This document shows positions 3,130-56,052 of a stretch of 64,000 nucleotides of DNA, piece by piece; within the stretch, counting starts at the first letter, position 1; every line of letters begins with the position of its first letter. The notes below the pieces were generated by a model, which worked only from the letters and a program-made list of their open reading frames with translations, had not been told where the DNA came from and did no database searches. The DNA comes from Labia minor (taxonomy: Eukaryota; Arthropoda; Insecta; Dermaptera; Spongiphoridae), in contig OY720346.1 in assembly GCA_963082975.1 (NCBI GenBank), forward strand, positions 43,253,296-43,317,295, in the 5' to 3' direction. Both the position numbers and the translations under genes were made by a program.

Positions 3130-4010
3130 ATCTGACTATTATTTCAATCTTTTTAACCTGTTCTTTTATAAATATAAATTAGAAGTAATAAAATCAATTA
3201 TATTGACATATATAAATATTACATATTTCATATATATGTATATAATAAACATTACTCTAAGTACGTATAAAGAAATTATAAATAAGTATAATTATATAGA
3301 CACAGCGATTCGATTTGTCTTGTTTCTAATACTCGTAGTTACGTAAATTAAATGCTCCTAAATAACAAACATATATTAATTTCAATGATAAAAAAAGATT
3401 AATATATTTGTTTATTTATATTATATGGATTAATCATTTTAGATTAATAACGTACCAAAAATGAAACTCTTTCTCCAAATATAATGTAATTATATTTGAA
3501 CAACAATATAATATATATTATCAATACAACATTAAATCAGAATGTTGAAGAAATAATGTAAATAATTAATTATTTTTTTAGATATATTTAAAAAAAAAGA
3601 TAAAATTTAGCTCATTCATTTTTACATAAAAATAAATCGCTAAGTGACTTACTCTGAATTATTTGGATTTACTCCACAACAATGAGGGAAATAAAAGATT
3701 TTGTATTTCTATGCAATCTTTGTTAAATAACTTAATTAATGTACTCAATTGAGAAATGTTTCTAATTTTCATGTCTTTTTCAGAAATTTGTTTTAAACAT
3801 AACGTATTGCAGGTTGTAAATGTTTTATTTTGAGTTAAAATAATTGTCATGAATTAAAAAATTTTGATTGAATAAAATTAGTATCTTTCCAAATACATCT
3901 TTTTCAGAAGACTTTTAGAAAGTTGAACTAATAAGAGTATAAGACAGTGTCATTTTTGGAATACTTAGTATCTTATATTAGACAACTTGCTGTCTGAACA
4001 GATTAACTCG
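3130..4010. other. A+T-rich stretch without a recognisable gene
   Basis: Only short A+T-rich open frames. No homology, splice-bounded exon or RNA gene was recognised. Confidence 0.6.
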
Positions 4011-25659: not shown

Positions 25660-27295
25660 ATAATTACAATTTTATATTTCTTTATGAAAACATTCAAGAG
25701 CTGAATTACATATCAATTCCATTATTGATATATTATATTTACATTTATATTTGTATATTTATTTGAATAAAAAAAAAATTGTTTAGAGATCTCAACTCTC
25801 TCTCTCTCTTGTCTAAATCAAAAGGTTAATTGTTTTATTTAATTAACGACTATTTCGTAACAGACTAACAATCTAATGAACTGCAATCTTCAAGATCATT
25901 CATGAAGAATTTTTTGCTTATAAAGTATAAATATATATATATGTGTCAAATAATATTATTACCCCAAATTCCATGAACAGAAATGTCTTTCCGATACACC
26001 TAATATATAAAATTTATTATTATTATTATTATTATTTATTATTATTATTTATTATTATTATTATTTATTATTATTATTATTTATTATTATTATTATTTAT
26101 TATTATTATTATTTATTATTATTATTATTTATTAATTTATTAATATTTATTAATTTATTAAATGAATAAATTACTGTTATGATTTTATATAATATAAAGA
26201 TTTGAGTTTTAGGGGAATATTTCTTTTTAAATTTTTACAAATAATAGTTTATTTCAAATTTCATTTTTCTACTTGTCAGCAACCCTTTTTAATTTAATTT
26301 CAAAGAATAAATAATTTAAACCAATTGAAATGTTGTAGAAAAAAAGCTTGGTAAAATATTAACTTTAATATATATATATATTCTCAAAAGCATTATAAAT
26401 TTCTTTTCAATTTTAATAAAATTATATACTCTCTTTTTTTATTTACCAACTTAATTAGTGTTTTTTTTAATTAATGTCAATTAATTTATATTCATTGTTA
26501 TTGAAAAATAAGAAAATAAACAATAAATGATTAATTAACTAATTATTATGGAAATATTGTTATTATGTTGAATACAAAATAAAAATTAAAAAAAAGTTCT
26601 AAGTGAAATTCAACGGGCGTTTTCTATTGCGTGGGTGAATGGGTTGAAAGCAACAACATCACGTATACATACGAACACCTCCCTCCCCATTCCTTATTTC
26701 AACCTCCTTTAAACTTGGATTCAACCAGCTCTATCGTTATTCCACCCTAGAGAGAGAGAGAGAGAAAGTTTAATTAGTTGACACAAGAGCATATAGTAGT
26801 CACACACTCACCCAGATATTCACTGCAACAACAACACCCTTCCTCAAATCTTATCCATGAATTACAATCTATAGAATTGTTATTCGAATGTTGTTGGTAT
26901 CATCTCATGCTTAGGATAGTAAATGAAAGAGAGAGAGAGAAGATAGAGAAAGATAGTGGGGGTATATACTTGTTCTGAAAGTGGGAGAGATACAAACATA
27001 TAGATTAAGTTAGTAAACAGATGTTTTCGTATTTAATCATCTGATTCTAATTAATAAATTAATTAATATATGTGTATGTACAAAATGATACACATAAATA
27101 TTAAAAGCAAACATTTATTTACGATAAATTTAATACTACACTATGCACGATTGTTAATGATATATAAAGTAAAAATAATCTTAAAAATAAAAAATCATAA
27201 TAAAAATAACTTGTAATCAAACACTCGGTGAAGTTTCAGGTTGAATAATATATTTGATTATACGCAATTCTAAGTAATCACGTAAAGCATATTAT
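25660..27295. other. A+T-rich stretch with ATT microsatellite and purine-rich island
   Basis: A 26630-26990 island of higher G+C contains (AG)n tracts. No gene is supported. Confidence 0.55.
26014..26150. repeat. (TTA)n microsatellite, imperfect
   Basis: TTA units interrupted by extra T at regular intervals (about every 16-20 bases). Frames through it give only Tyr/Ile/Leu runs. Confidence 0.95.
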
Positions 27296-27298
27296 AAA

Positions 27299-27812
27299 AC
27301 AGCTTATCTCTTCAAAATTATTATCAAAGGGAATCAAAATTAAAATATATAAAACAATTATTTTTCCGATTGTATTATATGGGTGTGAGGCATGGTCTAT
27401 GATCTTAGGAGATGAGAGAAGATTTAGAGTATTTGAGTATAGAATCCTTCGCAGCATTTATGGGCCAAAAAAAGATGAGGTCATCGGGGAATGGCGGAGA
27501 TTGCATAACGAGGAATTGCATGATCTTTATGCATCTCCAGATATAGTTATGGTTATAAAATCGAGAAGGCTGCGATGGGCAAGGCACGTGGCTAGAATGG
27601 GTGAGGAAAGAATGGCGAAAAATATATTGGTGGGGAGACCGATTGGGAAATCTCCGTTTAGAAGACCAAGAGACGCGATGTGGACAATGTAAGAAGAAAC
27701 GTGAGAGAGATGGGAGAGGGTAGCTGTGGCTCAGGATAGAGATACTTGGAGAATTGTGGTTACTGCGGCCCAGAACTTTCGAGTTTCGTAGAGTCATACC
27801 GATAGATATAGA
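27299..27812 (+). pseudogene. LINE 3' fragment, free-standing, copy b
   Basis: Begins within the region before LYGCEAWSMILGDERRFRVF. The longest clean frame, 27399-27692 (97 codons), continues with GPKKDEVIGEWRRLHNEELH, DLYASPDIVMVIKSRRLRW and ARHVARMGEERMAKNILVGR, then ends at a stop after the GRPIGK-type basic stretch. It is the least damaged version of this C-terminal segment in the window. The 3' tail is CGATAGATATAGATA. It lacks the reverse transcriptase and endonuclease domains, so it is inactive. Confidence 0.8.
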
Positions 27813-35673: not shown

Positions 35674-35972
35674 CAGAGGTTCTTAAACTGTGGTCCGCGG
35701 ACCCCTGGGGGTCCGCGAAGCCTTTAATAGGGGTCCGCAAAGCTGAATTTTCTTTCTTCAATATTATAATTTCTAATAAAATGTGTTCTACAATATGCAA
35801 AAAAATCGTTATTCACCAATCACTGTTAGGAATATTCATCATATATCCTTGTTCTTATGAGATCGTAAGCCAGAAAGTAACTAATAAAATGACGTAAAGT
35901 ATGGGATGGGGTCCGTCAATTAAAATTTTTTCAAGTGGGGGTTCGCGGAGTACATAAGTTTAAGAACCTCTG
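35674..35972 (-). mobile_element. hAT (Buster-type) MITE, 299 bp, derived from the 52-kb hAT
   Basis: The terminal inverted repeats CAGAGGTTCTTAAACT match over 16 bases and are flanked by a perfect 8-bp duplication, CACTACAG (35666-35673 and 35973-35980). The interior from TTCTTTCTTCAATATTATAA to GTACATAAG is the left subterminal region of the hAT at 52155-55481 in opposite orientation. The first 70 bases match that hAT's other end (GGTCCGCGGACCCC). It is therefore an internal-deletion derivative without transposase. Confidence 0.92.
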
Positions 35973-37165: not shown

Positions 37166-37738
37166 TAAAAAAACCCCTCTGACTTTTGTACGTCCTACAC
37201 AAGGACAACGCCTATCAAGTCGGTTATATCAGGGCTTCTTAAACTGTGGGTCGCGACCCCCAGGGGGGTCGCGAGACTACTGAAAGGGGGTCGCAAAGAT
37301 CTGATACTTTTGAATCATTATAAATAAAATTTTAAAATTATTAAATTATATATATGTGAAATGAATGGGTATGTATTCTTTAATCCTTATTTTATTTACA
37401 TTGTAAAATAGTGCGATATTACATCTACATCTACGGTTAATATATATTTCATTATATGGAGGAGGGGGTCGTTTAAAATTTCCTAAGCTTAAAGGGGGTC
37501 GCTATATAAAAAGTTTAAGAAGCCCTGGGTTATATGATCAGTAGAACGGGTCCTATCAACCTTTACCTTGATTTTCTTGATCGGAGGCGCTACTTTTTAT
37601 CAAGTAGCTTCCCAGTTGGGTTGATTCCGTCCCATAAACCCCAGCTAGAGAAATTCCCTTGCCAGGCACGGGACTTAAACCCGGGCCTACGAGAATGGGT
37701 GAAGGCGACGCTAGCCTCTCACTCTGTGGCGTGGTGTA
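37166..37738 (-). mobile_element. SINE-1 copy split by a hAT MITE
   Basis: On the minus strand the head has GAGTGAGAGGCTAGCGTCG (A-box-like) and CCCGGGTTTAAGTCCCGTG (B-box-like). The body continues with GGTTTATGGGACGGAATCAA and CGCCTCCGATCAAGAAAATC. It is interrupted at GGTTATAT by the MITE at 37230-37527 and resumes to GTCAGAGG plus a T-run. It is collinear with 20726-21005. Confidence 0.8.
37230..37527. mobile_element. hAT-type MITE, 298 bp, second family
   Basis: The ends CAGGGCTTCTTAAACT form a 16-base inverted repeat, flanked by a perfect 8-bp duplication, GGTTATAT (37222-37229 and 37528-37535). The inner sequence, with repeated GGGGGTCGC words near both ends, differs from the 35674 MITE, so it belongs to another member of the same branch. 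No coding sequence. Confidence 0.92.
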
Positions 37739-38462: not shown

Positions 38463-38600
38463 ATTTTATTAAATTAAATTTTATTATTAAAATAATTTTA
38501 TTTTATTAAATTAAATTTTATTATTAAAATAATTTTATTTTATTAAATTAAATTTTATTATTAAAATAATTTTATTTTATTAAATTATAATATTAAATTT
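38463..38600. repeat. 37-bp A+T tandem repeat, about 3.5 units
   Basis: The unit AAATTAAATTTTATTATTAA and its continuation starts at 38471, 38508 and 38545 with near-identical copies. Confidence 0.9.
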
Positions 38601-38832
38601 TATTTTATTAAATTAATAATTATGTCAATTAATTTTTTCTGCATAAATAAACATATATAAAAAACTATATAAAATTTGAATTTTCATTCATTCATTTAAA
38701 ATGATATTAAAATATTCCTTTGAAATATAATAAATAATTAAATTAATCCCTACTAGGGCCTCGGGGGGGGGGGGGGGGGAAGGTAACTTTCTCTTTTTGG
38801 AAAAACCCATATTGCCTTCCCCAGCTCGACTA

Positions 38833-51750: not shown

Positions 51751-52540
51751 ATTCATACACATCGTATTTTTAATATTTTTGTAATAATAATCAGTTTGCT
51801 GAAAAAAATAATTATGAATTTTATATATATATATATATATACGTATATAAATTTCATTTTTCTCGTGAAGCTGGTGCGCATTCCGTCTGCTTTCAAATTT
51901 CTTACGCACAAGTTTTCACTTCTGTCGGCCAGTCCCACGACTGCCAATTCGACTTTTTTTTTCGAGGTATAGAGAACTTTAAGTTGGCATTAATGTTCAA
52001 GTTGATGGCCGATTTAACACCTATCAAGTGATTTATTCTCAGTTTGGTTTGGTAATTCATCCTGAATAGACCCACGCCTGAACAACGCTTGGAAATAGTT
52101 CAATTTTATTTCGAAAATAATGGTTCTGTGCGGAATACGTATCGTGCACTACACCATAGGTTCTTAAACTTATGTACTCCACGGACCCCCACTTGAAAAA
52201 ATTTTTTTTGACGGACCCCCATCACAACTTTAGGTACTTTACGTCATTTTATTAATTAATTTCTGGCTTACGATCTCATAAGGACAAGGATATATGATGA
52301 ATATTTCTAACAGTGATTGGTGAATAACGATTTTTTTGCATATTGTAGAACACATTTTATTAGAAATTATAATATTGAAGAAAGAAAATACAAACATTGT
52401 CATAGCAACAAATCTCACAAATTATAATGGGTACTTACATTAAATTCATATAAATATTTTATAATTTTTTTCAGAAAATATTAAATAAGAAATATTTTAA
52501 AAAATAACTGCATCTATCTCATTAAATATAACTTACATAT

Positions 52541-54400
52541 TTAATGAGATGTATGCAGTTGTTTTCTTGAAACAAGAATCTCAATATCTGGCTTAATATT
52601 GGAAACTTTTAATCTAAGATCCGGCTCTACATTTAATTTGTTTCTATATTTAGACTTAATATAAAATAGTACCGAAAAAGCTTGTTCGCATAAATATGTT
52701 GTGCAGAATGGAATCAAGTGTTGAAGTGCTTTATTTGCAAGCGCAGGATAATCTGACCTGAGAAGTAACCAAAAGTTGCTCAATTCAGTTTTGTTAAATT
52801 TTAGTTTATAAGTTGTATCACATGATAATTCCACGAGAATATCTTGTTCAGGTGCAGATAAATGTTTAGCATTTGTAATTTCCATATTAAATGGATCTCT
52901 GATCCAGTTATTGCAAGGATCAGGAGTAGAAAAATACTTCCTGAAGTTGCTTTTCAAAGTAATTAAATGTTCAACAAATAATTGACGCGTTTGATTAAGC
53001 AATTTTTCACTGGAGCTTTCTATGAAATCATTGAGAGTTGGAAAAGACTCATATACACCGTTCTGGATGCGTTTCGACCACAAGTCGATTTTTTTAATCA
53101 TTGCTTCTATTTTATCTTCAACTTTAAATATATTTACAACAGTACCTTGCAGGCTCAAATTAAGTTCGTTCAATTTTGTAAAAATATCAGTCAAGTAAGC
53201 CACCTTAGCTAACCAGATAAAATCATTGAAACATTCGGTCAGTTCAAAATGCGCATCTATTAAAAACAATCGTATTTCATCTCGAAGCTCAAAAACGCGA
53301 ATGAGTACTTTCCCGCGGGACAACCAACGTACATCTGTATGTAATAATAAATGTGTATGTTGACTACCCATTTCCTCACACAAAATTTTAAAAACTCTGG
53401 AATTAAGTGGACGAGCCTTAATGAAATTGACAATTTTAACTACTTCGTCTAATGTTCTTTTCAAATCTGGTGACATATTTTTGGCTGCTAATGATTCTCT
53501 GTGAATGCAGCAATGATTCCAAACAACCTGAGGCGCAACATTTTTAATAAGAGCAATCAATCCAGTTCTTGTACCTGACATTGCACGAGCACCATCAGTG
53601 CAAATTCCAACACATTTTGGCCACTCTATTTCATTTTCGGTTATAAAATTATTCAAACTGTTAAATATGTCATTAGCTGTCGTTCGTGAAGGTAGTGAAT
53701 CACAAAACAATACATCTTCTTGTATTTGATTTTCAAACTCATATCTAATGAAAGCTAACAAATTGGCATTATTAGTGACATCAGTACTTTCATCCAATTG
53801 TAATGAGTAATAGTGACTTTTGCGCACTCTCGATATTAATTCTTCTTTTATATTACATGACATGTCTTCAATCCTATTCTTAACCGTATCATTTGATAAT
53901 GAAATCAAATTTATATCGTTTGCTGCTTTAGTTCCTAACATTATATTTGTAATTACTTTTGTAGCAGGAAGAATTAATTGCTCTGCTATATTATGCGGCT
54001 TTCCTGCTTTAGCAATAAGTAGAGCTACTTCATATGATGCCATTACTGCTTTCTTACTCATACCACCAGATCCCGTCTTTACCATCAATTTCTGACTTGA
54101 ATTAAGTTCTTCTTTTTTCATTTTAAAAAATTCGATAGACTTACTAACATGCTCGCTGTGCTTTGTTTGTAAATGACGTCTGAGATTAGCAGGTTTCATA
54201 CTTTCATTGGATAAACTTTCCTGTCATAGAACGCAGACTGGTCTTTCCACATCATTGTTGCAAATATAAGTAAATCCAAATGATAAATAATCATCCGAAT
54301 ATTTTCTAGTTTTGCGTTTCTTGGTAGAGTTTGCTGTTGATGCCTCATCATCTGATTCTTTCCGTTTCTGTGTTGAACCAGTTTGTAGCCAACGATCCAT
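52541..54400 (-). pseudogene. hAT (Buster/ZBED5-like) transposase with one internal stop
   Basis: From the ATG at 54400-54398 the frame starts MDRWLQTGSTQKRKESDDEA, has a basic KKRKTRK stretch (possible nuclear signal), then the BED zinc finger. In the finger the second ligand of PVCVL-x-Q is a TGA (54226-54224, codon 59) instead of a Cys codon. The frame then stays open for 560 codons. The BED His pair is in RRHLQTKH. Counting from the internal Met at 54199, the catalytic region shows LDESTD (Asp136), CTDGARAMSG (Asp202), CCIHRESL, DVRWLSRGKVL and the C-terminal dimerisation block with LCEQAFS (Glu505). The three acidic residues of the hAT DDE triad are thus kept. Re-initiation at 54199 would give a 552-residue protein without a whole BED finger. 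Confidence 0.93.
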
Positions 54401-54489
54401 TTTATGGAGTAATTTATTAACATTGAACTACAATAATATAAATATAATATAAATATAATATAAATATAACGAATTATTATTTACTAGCT

Positions 54490-54722
54490 ATGTTTTAATA
54501 TGATTTTAAATGAATGTTTTAATATCATTTTAAATGAATGTTTTAAATCATTTTAATAAATGTTTTAAATCATTTTAAATAAATGATTTAATATCATTTT
54601 AAATGAATATTAATTTATATAATAAATATATTTCGTAATTTGATTCTAAAATATTATTAATTTCGTAATTTGATTCTAAAATATTATTAATTTCGTAATT
54701 TGATTCTAAAATATTATTAAAA
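54490..54722. repeat. Two adjacent tandem repeats inside the hAT
   Basis: A 24-bp unit (ATGTTTTAATATCATTTTAA and continuation) starts at 54490, 54514 and 54538 and continues for about five copies. A 30-bp unit (CGTAATTTGATTCTAAAATA and continuation) follows in three copies. Both lie upstream of the transposase ATG, between it and the nearer terminus. Confidence 0.9.
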
Positions 54723-54905
54723 TAAATATTTTTTATTCATAAAACTAACTTATACTTACTCTCAAAAACAGCCTTTCTGGGAAATTGCAAAATGTGTTTA
54801 GTGTTTTTATAAAATAATGATCATGCAAATTATACTAAAAATTAAAAAAAATTATTAGCTATAATAAACTATTATTAGCTATAATTTAATTATAATTAAT
54901 TAAAT

Positions 54906-55015
54906 TAATAAAAATAATTTAAAGATACAACTCGTTGAGAAATGAACTTATAATTAACATTAATAAAAATAATTTAAAGATACAACTCGTTGAGAAATGA
55001 ACTTATAATTAACAT
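54906..55015. repeat. 55-bp direct duplication inside the hAT
   Basis: TAATAAAAATAATTTAAAGA and its continuation through CTCGTTGAGAAATGAAC begins at 54906 and again at 54961, with no difference noticed. Confidence 0.9.
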
Positions 55016-55663
55016 TTGCTTTAAAACTGTTTAAAACCCCAGAGTGGACGCTGACAATTTGGGTTTTTCCGGGTAAGACTGTCCCCTCCCCTGGTTTTCC
55101 CCAATAACAAAGTGAAAGAAAATTCCCTTATATGCCTCCCCTTCCGAGCCCCTAAGAGGGGTTATTTTAAAGGAACAATCGAAAAATGATTTTAAATGAA
55201 TGAATGGATGAAAATTCAAATTTTATATATAGTTTTTTATATATGTTTATTTATTCACAAAAAATTAATTGACATAATTATCAATTTAATAAAATAAAAT
55301 AGTATTATTAATAGTATTAAATTATAGCCGTAATTCTCTAGGAGGATATAGTTAAACAATGAACTTTAAATATTTATATATGTATATATTTTTACGATGA
55401 TTTTTTTCCGAGGACCGCGGACCCCCAGTAAAGGCTTCGCGGACCCCCAGGGGTCCGCGGACCACAGTTTAAGAACCACTGCACTACACCATTTTATCGT
55501 CGACAAAATCGTCCATCAGAGCTGTTAATTCGATTAACCATGGAACGTTTTTGCACCACGTTTACTCTTATTGATAACTCGCATCCCCAGAGACGCCGAA
55601 CGGTGCGTACAGAAGAAGCTATTGCTACTGTAGAGCGTAGCATTGAAGAACGTTACAGTCAAT

Positions 55664-56052
55664 GGTGATCGGTATAAAGCCATGATTACTAACTTTTTTA
55701 TTCCTGAATTGAACAACCATGTGTGGTTCCAACAAGTCGGCGCAACATGTTACACAGCTTATTGAAAGACAAGTTTGGTGACCGCCTAATTTCACGTTTT
55801 GTACCTGTGAATTGGCCTCCAAGATCTTGTGATTTTACACCGTTAGACTACTTTCTGTGGGGCTATGTAAAGTCATTGGTCTATGCGGATAAGCCACAAA
55901 CGCTTGACCATTTGGAAGACAACATTCGCCGTGTTATTGCCGATATACGGCCACAAATGTTGGAAAAAGTTATCGAAAATTGGACGTCCAGATTGGAATA
56001 CATCCGAGCCAGCCGTGGTGGTCATATGCCAGAAATCATATATAAAATGTAA
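55664..56052 (+). pseudogene. Mariner (M3) transposase, C-terminal half
   Basis: The fragment begins TVNGDRYKAMITNFFIPEL. The second catalytic motif reads WFQQVGATCYTA, where the family has QQDGA, so the second catalytic Asp has become Val. After a small deletion and a frame change, LLKDKFGDRLISRFVPVNW continues open (55723-56052) with PPRSCDFTPLDYFLWGYVK, keeping the third acidic residue. It ends RASRGGHMPEIIYKM and a stop. It is a catalytically dead remnant; the N-terminal part is split off by the hAT and an internal deletion. Confidence 0.82.

What the first reader, a model, noticed from the sequence alone, without database searches (positions are those of the whole stretch)
52155..55481. 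Near-intact Buster-type hAT silenced by one TGA at a zinc-ligand cysteine
TIRs, a perfect 8-bp duplication and a 619-codon frame are present. The only lesion I see is TGA at 54226-54224, where the BED finger needs its second Cys (a TGC/TGT to TGA change). The catalytic Asp, Asp and Glu motifs and the dimerisation block are intact. Such a copy implies recent activity and probably intact siblings elsewhere. The stop could also be a rare allele or a sequencing error.
Basis: partly seen in the sequence, partly recalled or inferred. Interest (0 to 1): 0.75.

Follow-up and report, generated by a model that had tools for sequence, protein, structure and literature searches.

The report
Stop-bearing copy of exploding Buster transposon
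The jumping gene in this window carries a stop early in its enzyme gene, but it belongs to a family that spread very recently to about 1,600 places in this genome, nearly all sampled copies look intact, and a perfect twin on another chromosome suggests that the broken form was itself moved, presumably with enzyme made by its siblings.

Summary
A 3,327-bp hAT element (52155-55481) with an exact 8-bp duplication carries a 619-codon frame with one stop, at codon 59. In 28 complete copies (the window's included) all 56 flank octamers read NNNTANNN, the Buster target rule. A 30-base marker around codon 59 has 1,569 exact places in the genome; the 28 copies differ by 0.13% on average in the frame. 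Of 20 copies taken only by that marker, 19 keep the whole frame. Intact siblings therefore exist in number.

Sequencing error is unlikely. The stop lies in 4 exact marker places. One, on C10, equals the window copy at 3,327 of 3,327 bases in different flanks with its own duplication, and shares a variant found at no other exact place. So the stop-bearing form transposed after gaining the stop, presumably on enzyme supplied in trans. The other two stop copies have different SNP backgrounds; conversion and recurrent mutation both remain open. Frame changes look neutral (4 synonymous, 11 non-synonymous, 1 stop). The element sits in a decayed mariner-like gene; 40 scored paralogs run across the empty site.

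In kind it is ordinary; the burst's youth, size and completeness are notable.

The parts
52155..55481 (-). Buster-type hAT element, 3,327 bp, transposase gene on the minus strand
   Evidence: ends, TIRs and duplication; 1,569 exact marker places; identical copy on C10
52147..52154 (.). left copy of the 8-bp target site duplication CACTACAC
   Evidence: fits NNNTANNN
55482..55489 (.). right copy of the 8-bp target site duplication CACTACAC
52155..52170 (+). left terminal inverted repeat CATAGGTTCTTAAACT (3' end of the element in gene sense)
55466..55481 (-). right terminal inverted repeat CAGTGGTTCTTAAACT (5' end of the element in gene sense)
52177..52221 (+). left subterminal CGGACCCCCA repeats, possibly transposase-binding (inference)
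   Evidence: repeat family D6
55413..55449 (+). right subterminal CGGACCCCCA repeats
   Evidence: repeat family D6
52541..54400 (-). single-exon transposase frame, 619 codons plus stop, one internal stop
   Evidence: Pfam Dimer_Tnp_hAT below its curated cut-off
54224..54226 (-). TGA at codon 59, where siblings have a sense codon for the second zinc-ligand cysteine
54158..54238 (-). BED-like zinc finger (CxxC ... HxxxxH)
   Evidence: in open sibling L043: zf-C2H2_12 17.7 bits (cut-off 27.3) and zf-BED 16.7 bits (cut-off 20.6), both below cut-off
53780..53803 (-). LQLDESTD motif, first catalytic Asp (role recalled)
53573..53608 (-). GICTDGARAMSG motif, second catalytic Asp (role recalled)
52673..52702 (-). 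TTYLCEQAFS motif, catalytic Glu and start of the dimerisation block (role recalled)
   Evidence: Dimer_Tnp_hAT
52501..52565 (.). hairpin (29-nt arms, 90% complementary) over the end of the frame
   Evidence: pair I1
54433..55016 (.). AT-rich leader with tandem arrays (11-, 24-, 30- and 55-bp units); array length varies between siblings
52070..52146 (+). left flank: N-terminal part of a decayed mariner-like transposase gene, the target of the insertion (name is my reading)
55490..56052 (+). right flank: rest of the same decayed mariner-like gene (name is my reading; Pfam gave no match for 55723-56049)
35674..35972 (-). 299-bp non-coding derivative (MITE) of a related lineage, duplication CACTACAG
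   Evidence: junction in 67 exact places; identical twin on C2

Best explanation
The element is one member of a very recent, very large burst of a cut-and-paste Buster-type hAT transposon that codes for its own transposase. After one copy gained a stop in the zinc-finger codon 59 it could no longer make full-length transposase, but its ends stayed recognisable, so transposase from intact siblings moved it to a second chromosome. Shown: stop, duplications, target rule, number of marker places, identical stop-bearing twin at a second locus. Inferred: that the mobilising enzyme came from siblings, that the stop abolishes function, and that the unsampled copies resemble the sampled ones.
For: 1,569 places match 30 fixed bases around codon 59 exactly, none the reversed control; 1,589 with up to one mismatch; 1,557 exact left ends. 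Mean pairwise difference in the frame is 0.13% over 28 complete copies, the window's among them. 24 of 28 have exact 8-bp duplications, all 24 different; 56 of 56 flank octamers read NNNTANNN. Of 20 copies picked only by the marker, 19 are open over 619 codons. The stop is in 4 exact marker places. The C10 copy equals the window copy at 3,327 of 3,327 bases in unrelated flanks with duplication ATATAGAC; variant 54833T has exact matches only in these two, within a group of 18 exact places with 53296C. The two other stop copies also have exact duplications of their own. Frame mutations in the 20 are 4 synonymous, 11 non-synonymous, 1 stop against neutral fractions 0.206, 0.727, 0.067, as expected if the enzyme acts in trans.
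Against: No expression, excision or read data were available. Leaky reading of the UGA, or a restart at the next in-frame ATG (54199-54197, 552 aa), could in principle supply some protein in cis. The identical pair could both be daughters of a third stop-bearing copy; that still needs mobility after the stop. Assembly or polishing errors can spread variants among near-identical repeats. Pfam matches are below curated cut-offs, no PDB chain matched and the fold prediction failed.
Confidence: 0.88

Rival explanations
1. The stop is a sequencing, polishing or assembly error.
For: The family has about 1,600 near-identical places, where polishing can misplace variants; no reads could be checked.
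Against: Four loci carry it, each with a clean, different 8-bp duplication; two of them also share a variant with no other exact match in the genome.
Confidence: 0.06
2. The stop-bearing copies moved on their own: UGA read-through or a restart at the next ATG gives a working transposase or a repressor, and the allele is kept for that reason.
For: The frame reopens at an in-frame ATG nine codons on (552 aa). The stop is on three SNP backgrounds, while a given single change near codon 59 is expected in about 0.2 copies (1,589 minus 1,569 = 20 single-mismatch copies over 30 sites and 3 changes; hand arithmetic).
Against: In Hermes the first 78 residues, BED included, are reported indispensable for transposition in vivo (PMC10368747, passages seen). 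One stop copy also carries a 1-bp deletion and another a 3-bp deletion in the frame. Only 4 of 1,569 exact marker places carry the stop; frame mutations look neutral.
Confidence: 0.05
3. The four stop copies arose by two or three independent mutations rather than by descent plus ectopic conversion (a question about history that is compatible with the best explanation).
For: L059 and L060 lack 53296C and 54833T and differ from each other. The evidence for conversion is modest once array sites, indels and the stop itself are set aside (3 of 15 SNP pairs).
Against: 17 of 45 marker pairs in all show the four combinations, which favours exchange between copies; at this mutation level three hits at one site are unlikely (hand estimate).
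Confidence: 0.4
4. The family is old and kept uniform by concerted evolution rather than recently expanded.
For: Some signs of inter-copy exchange.
Against: 24 of 28 duplications are still exact, and two of the four mismatched ones differ at one base; conversion inside the element would not keep the host-derived duplications matching.
Confidence: 0.04

Closest known systems
Buster family of hAT transposons (TcBuster, AeBuster, SPIN, Mar)
   Same: 8-bp duplications of the form nnnTAnnn, short TIRs, under 4 kb (PMC3499496 and PMC3517528, passages seen); motif order of hAT transposases (recalled)
   Different: here an intronless 619-aa frame with 1,569 exact marker places in one genome; no named Buster sequence was available to place it in a tree
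Mar MITEs of Drosophila willistoni
   Same: Buster element accompanied by internally deleted derivatives (PMC3517528, passages seen)
   Different: there the full-length partner is described as a relic; here the full-length element is the abundant young form, and the MITE in the window is about 8% diverged from it
Mariner-2_DF burst in the fire ant
   Same: recent DNA transposon burst in an insect, with identical copies (PMC6307670, abstract and section 18 seen)
   Different: 857 copies of at least 60% length with diversity 0.005 there; 1,569 exact marker places and 0.0013 in the frame of 28 copies here (counted differently); another superfamily
Harbinger-Snek in sea kraits
   Same: explosive DNA transposon expansion (PMC8437027, abstract and section 12 seen)
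   Different: there 8-12% of the genome but 1 and 269 fully intact copies in two species; here at most about 0.9% of the genome, with 19 of 20 sampled frames open

Membership tests
hAT superfamily | 8-bp target site duplication | tested here: met
   24 of 28 complete copies exact
hAT superfamily | short terminal inverted repeats, length under 4 kb | tested here: met
   3,327 bp; 14 of 16 terminal bases agree between the two ends
hAT superfamily | hAT C-terminal dimerisation domain | tested here: inconclusive
   PF05699 at 19.7 bits, E 0.00075, below the curated 21.4
hAT superfamily | N-terminal BED zinc finger | tested here: inconclusive
   in open sibling L043, PF02892 at 16.7 bits against 20.6, and PF18658 (Spin-doc zinc finger) slightly better at 17.7 against 27.3; CxxC...HxxxxH spacing visible
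hAT superfamily | DDE catalytic triad in an RNase H fold | tested here: inconclusive
   motifs present, but the single-sequence fold was unusable (mean pLDDT 36.4) and no PDB chain matched by sequence at E up to 0.1
Buster family | target consensus nnnTAnnn | tested here: met
   56 of 56 flank octamers of 28 copies
Buster family | transposase groups with Buster rather than Ac in a tree | not testable with these tools
   no relatives found; no collection of named eukaryotic transposases on hand
autonomous active element | transposition shown | not testable with these tools
   activity only inferred from identical copies at different sites

The most novel reading that the evidence does not exclude
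This genome is caught in one of the youngest and most complete DNA-transposon explosions described: well over a thousand apparently intact autonomous Buster copies (extrapolated from 19 of 20), few fresh deletion derivatives, with copies exchanging sequence by ectopic conversion so that even a nonsense allele has reached different backgrounds and continues to be moved in trans. If so it is a natural experiment on what stops a DNA-transposon burst, seen before MITEs and dead copies dilute the active ones.
Probability: 0.4. Interest if true: 0.65.

Novelty: new member of a known kind. Interest (0 to 1): 0.5.

Why it matters
A burst with so many near-identical, apparently intact copies is rare material: it lets one ask how cut-and-paste elements multiply, when inactive passengers begin to dilute the active ones, and how sequence moves between dispersed copies. 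The window copy adds a clean genomic case of a nonsense-bearing copy that moved after it broke.

Tried and rejected
Relatives in other collections: genome contigs, viral contigs (protein query; one DNA pattern), phages and plasmids gave none. No PDB chain matched by sequence. The structure prediction from a single sequence was too poor for a fold search, so none was run. No tRNA and no Rfam family at its gathering score were found in the window. Pfam gave no match for the right part of the mariner-like flank, so that name rests on my reading. The host species was not identified; 'insect-like' is my inference from the AT-rich, transposon-rich window.

Reassigned TGA (a code with TGA as cysteine) was considered and dropped: siblings read an ordinary cysteine codon, and TGA is in only 4 of 1,569 exact marker places. 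The left-TIR mismatch as a second lesion was dropped. The 23 to 44 strand imbalance of the MITE junction was not pursued. Of 30 copies examined, L003 and L040 were dropped from the 28-copy alignment because an end was missing; L040 was kept for the 20-frame count. The 28 include the window copy itself (L002). L001-L008 came from the best protein matches to the window, L059-L060 because they carry the stop; only L039-L058 (the first 20 listed places on C1, from one 6.6-Mb stretch) were not chosen by frame. The first run of the end finder failed on my own pattern and was redone.

Full report
What is there. The element at 52155-55481 is 3,327 bp long, ends in CATAGGTTCTTAAACT and CAGTGGTTCTTAAACT (read inward), and is flanked by an exact 8-bp duplication, CACTACAC. 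On the minus strand a 619-codon frame runs from 54400 to 52541 with one internal stop, TGA at 54226-54224, codon 59. Pfam sees the hAT dimerisation region below its cut-off (19.7 against 21.4 bits). In an open sibling it sees a zinc finger below cut-off as zf-C2H2_12 (17.7 against 27.3) and zf-BED (16.7 against 20.6). No PDB chain matched, and the fold prediction was unusable.

Insertion site. The flanks read as two halves of a decayed mariner-like transposase gene (the name is my reading, and Pfam gave no match for the right part). A search with the joined flanks scored 40 of 619 candidate places, all at 95-97% identity and covering at least 232 of 236 bases across the junction. In the three aligned, the target octamer appears once, as CACTACAT or CACTACGT, with a 1-bp difference in length from the window. 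Both duplication copies in the window share that difference, so it is probably older than the insertion.

The siblings. The window lies at C4:43253296-43317295 of a 604-Mb genome in 71 contigs. With the 560-aa piece as query, 78 of 3,606 candidates were scored, the best ones; all 78 matched over 560 of 560 residues at a rounded 100% without a stop inside. A marker of 30 fixed bases around codon 59 has 1,569 exact places (787 plus 782) and its reversed control none; one mismatch allowed gives 1,589. Exact left ends number 1,557. The right-end count did not complete. For the 100 listed codon-59 places, all on C1, 78 have an exact left end at exactly the expected 2,054 bp, 15 at another distance (two of them far off: 509 and 4,776 bp) and 7 none. 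Of 98 left ends typed, 5 have no listed partner, and two of those five lie at full-frame protein matches. Two of the seven without an exact left end, L045 and L050, have one with a changed base. Left ends and codon-59 markers are thus about equally frequent, which speaks against a large crowd of fresh internally deleted derivatives. At 3.3 kb each the family is at most about 5.2 Mb, 0.9% of the genome (arithmetic).

Anatomy across copies. Of 30 copies examined, the window's among them, 28 had both ends. 24 of the 28 have exact 8-bp duplications, all different; all 56 flank octamers read NNNTANNN, the consensus reported for Buster elements (PMC3517528, PMC3499496; passages seen). Of the four mismatched pairs, two differ at one base. 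The other two (L008, L050) have unrelated octamers that both fit the rule, as ectopic recombination between copies or an assembly join would give. 26 of 28 left ends read CATAGG, so the imperfect TIR is the family's own.

Age and constraint. Mean pairwise difference in the frame is 0.13% over the 28 copies, a set partly chosen for likeness to the window. At a recalled insect mutation rate near 3e-9 per site and generation this is of the order of 200,000 generations (inference). In the 20 copies L039-L058, picked only by the marker, 19 are open over 619 codons and one has a stop at codon 190. Distinct frame mutations are 4 synonymous, 11 non-synonymous and 1 stop; the neutral expectation is 0.206, 0.727 and 0.067 of the total. 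The numbers are small, but nothing suggests selection on individual copies, as expected when the enzyme works in trans. By the same token a stop in a few per cent of copies is expected, and the window copy is one of those.

The stop allele. Four exact marker places carry the stop: C2:29840696, C4 (the window), C9:50472789 and C10:54939068; copies with another change in the marker would not be counted. The C10 copy is identical to the window copy at all 3,327 bases, lies in different flanks and has its own duplication, ATATAGAC. Both carry 53296C, which has 18 exact places, and 54833T, which has these two exact places only. The simplest history is that the stop arose in one copy and that this form moved afterwards. 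Since its own frame is cut after residue 58, the enzyme presumably came from siblings; the Hermes BED region is reported indispensable in vivo (PMC10368747, passages seen), which argues against a working product from the next ATG. The C2 and C9 copies lack 53296C and 54833T and have other differences, including a 1-bp and a 3-bp deletion in the frame. Among the 28 copies, 17 of 45 marker pairs show all four combinations (8 SNPs and 2 array indels, pairs counted by hand). Without the indels and the stop site it is 6 of 21; without site 54571, which lies in a tandem array, 3 of 15. Exchange of sequence between copies is thus likely but modestly supported, and the stop may have been passed on by conversion; recurrent mutation and polishing artefacts are not excluded.

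MITEs. A 299-bp non-coding element at 35674-35972 shares 238 bp and 65 bp with the element's two ends (91.6% and 95.4%) and has duplication CACTACAG. Its deletion junction occurs exactly in 67 places. Of 40 scored matches (1,106 candidates) one other is identical over 299 of 299 bases, three are at 98-99%, two at 95-96% and 33 at 93-94%. These seem to derive from a related lineage older than the burst, though some moved recently (inference).

Place among known things. It behaves as a Buster-type hAT element; the target rule was tested and met, tree placement could not be tested. In the papers read, a fire-ant mariner burst has 857 copies of at least 60% length with diversity 0.005 (PMC6307670, section 18), and the sea-krait Harbinger burst 1 and 269 fully intact copies (PMC8437027, section 12); the counting differs from mine. 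Four listing searches (19 of 19 papers listed, 19 of 19, 20 of 50, 20 of 21; titles and starts of abstracts seen) showed no paper on a Buster burst of this size; a fifth, on conversion, found nothing. The library is partial and the host unnamed, so this is weak evidence of novelty.

Noticed in passing
window 37230-37527: A second, distinct 298-bp hAT-like MITE with ends CAGGGCTTCTTAAACT and duplication GGTTATAT, also NNNTANNN.
   Followed up: partly
window 35674-35972: 299-bp MITE related to the element, with an identical twin on C2; 67 exact junction places, 23 on one strand and 44 on the other.
   Followed up: partly
window 38566-38815: Stretch 68-84% similar to the element's AT-rich leader, next to a long G run; perhaps a relic of a related element.
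   Followed up: no
window 27258-27692: Open frame resembling the C-terminal end of a LINE-type reverse transcriptase protein (my reading, no search run).
   Followed up: no
L008 and L050: Copies whose two flank octamers are unrelated yet both fit NNNTANNN, as if two insertions had recombined or been misjoined. L008 abuts part of another copy on its left.
   Followed up: partly
L046, L045, L051: Copies interrupted by 641, 125 and 426 bp of extra sequence; that of L051 matches a duplicated part of the element itself.
   Followed up: partly
G000:C1:81.77-82.01 Mb: Four of the 18 exact places with 53296C lie within 240 kb of each other in the same orientation, possibly local hopping or a segmental duplication.
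   Followed up: no
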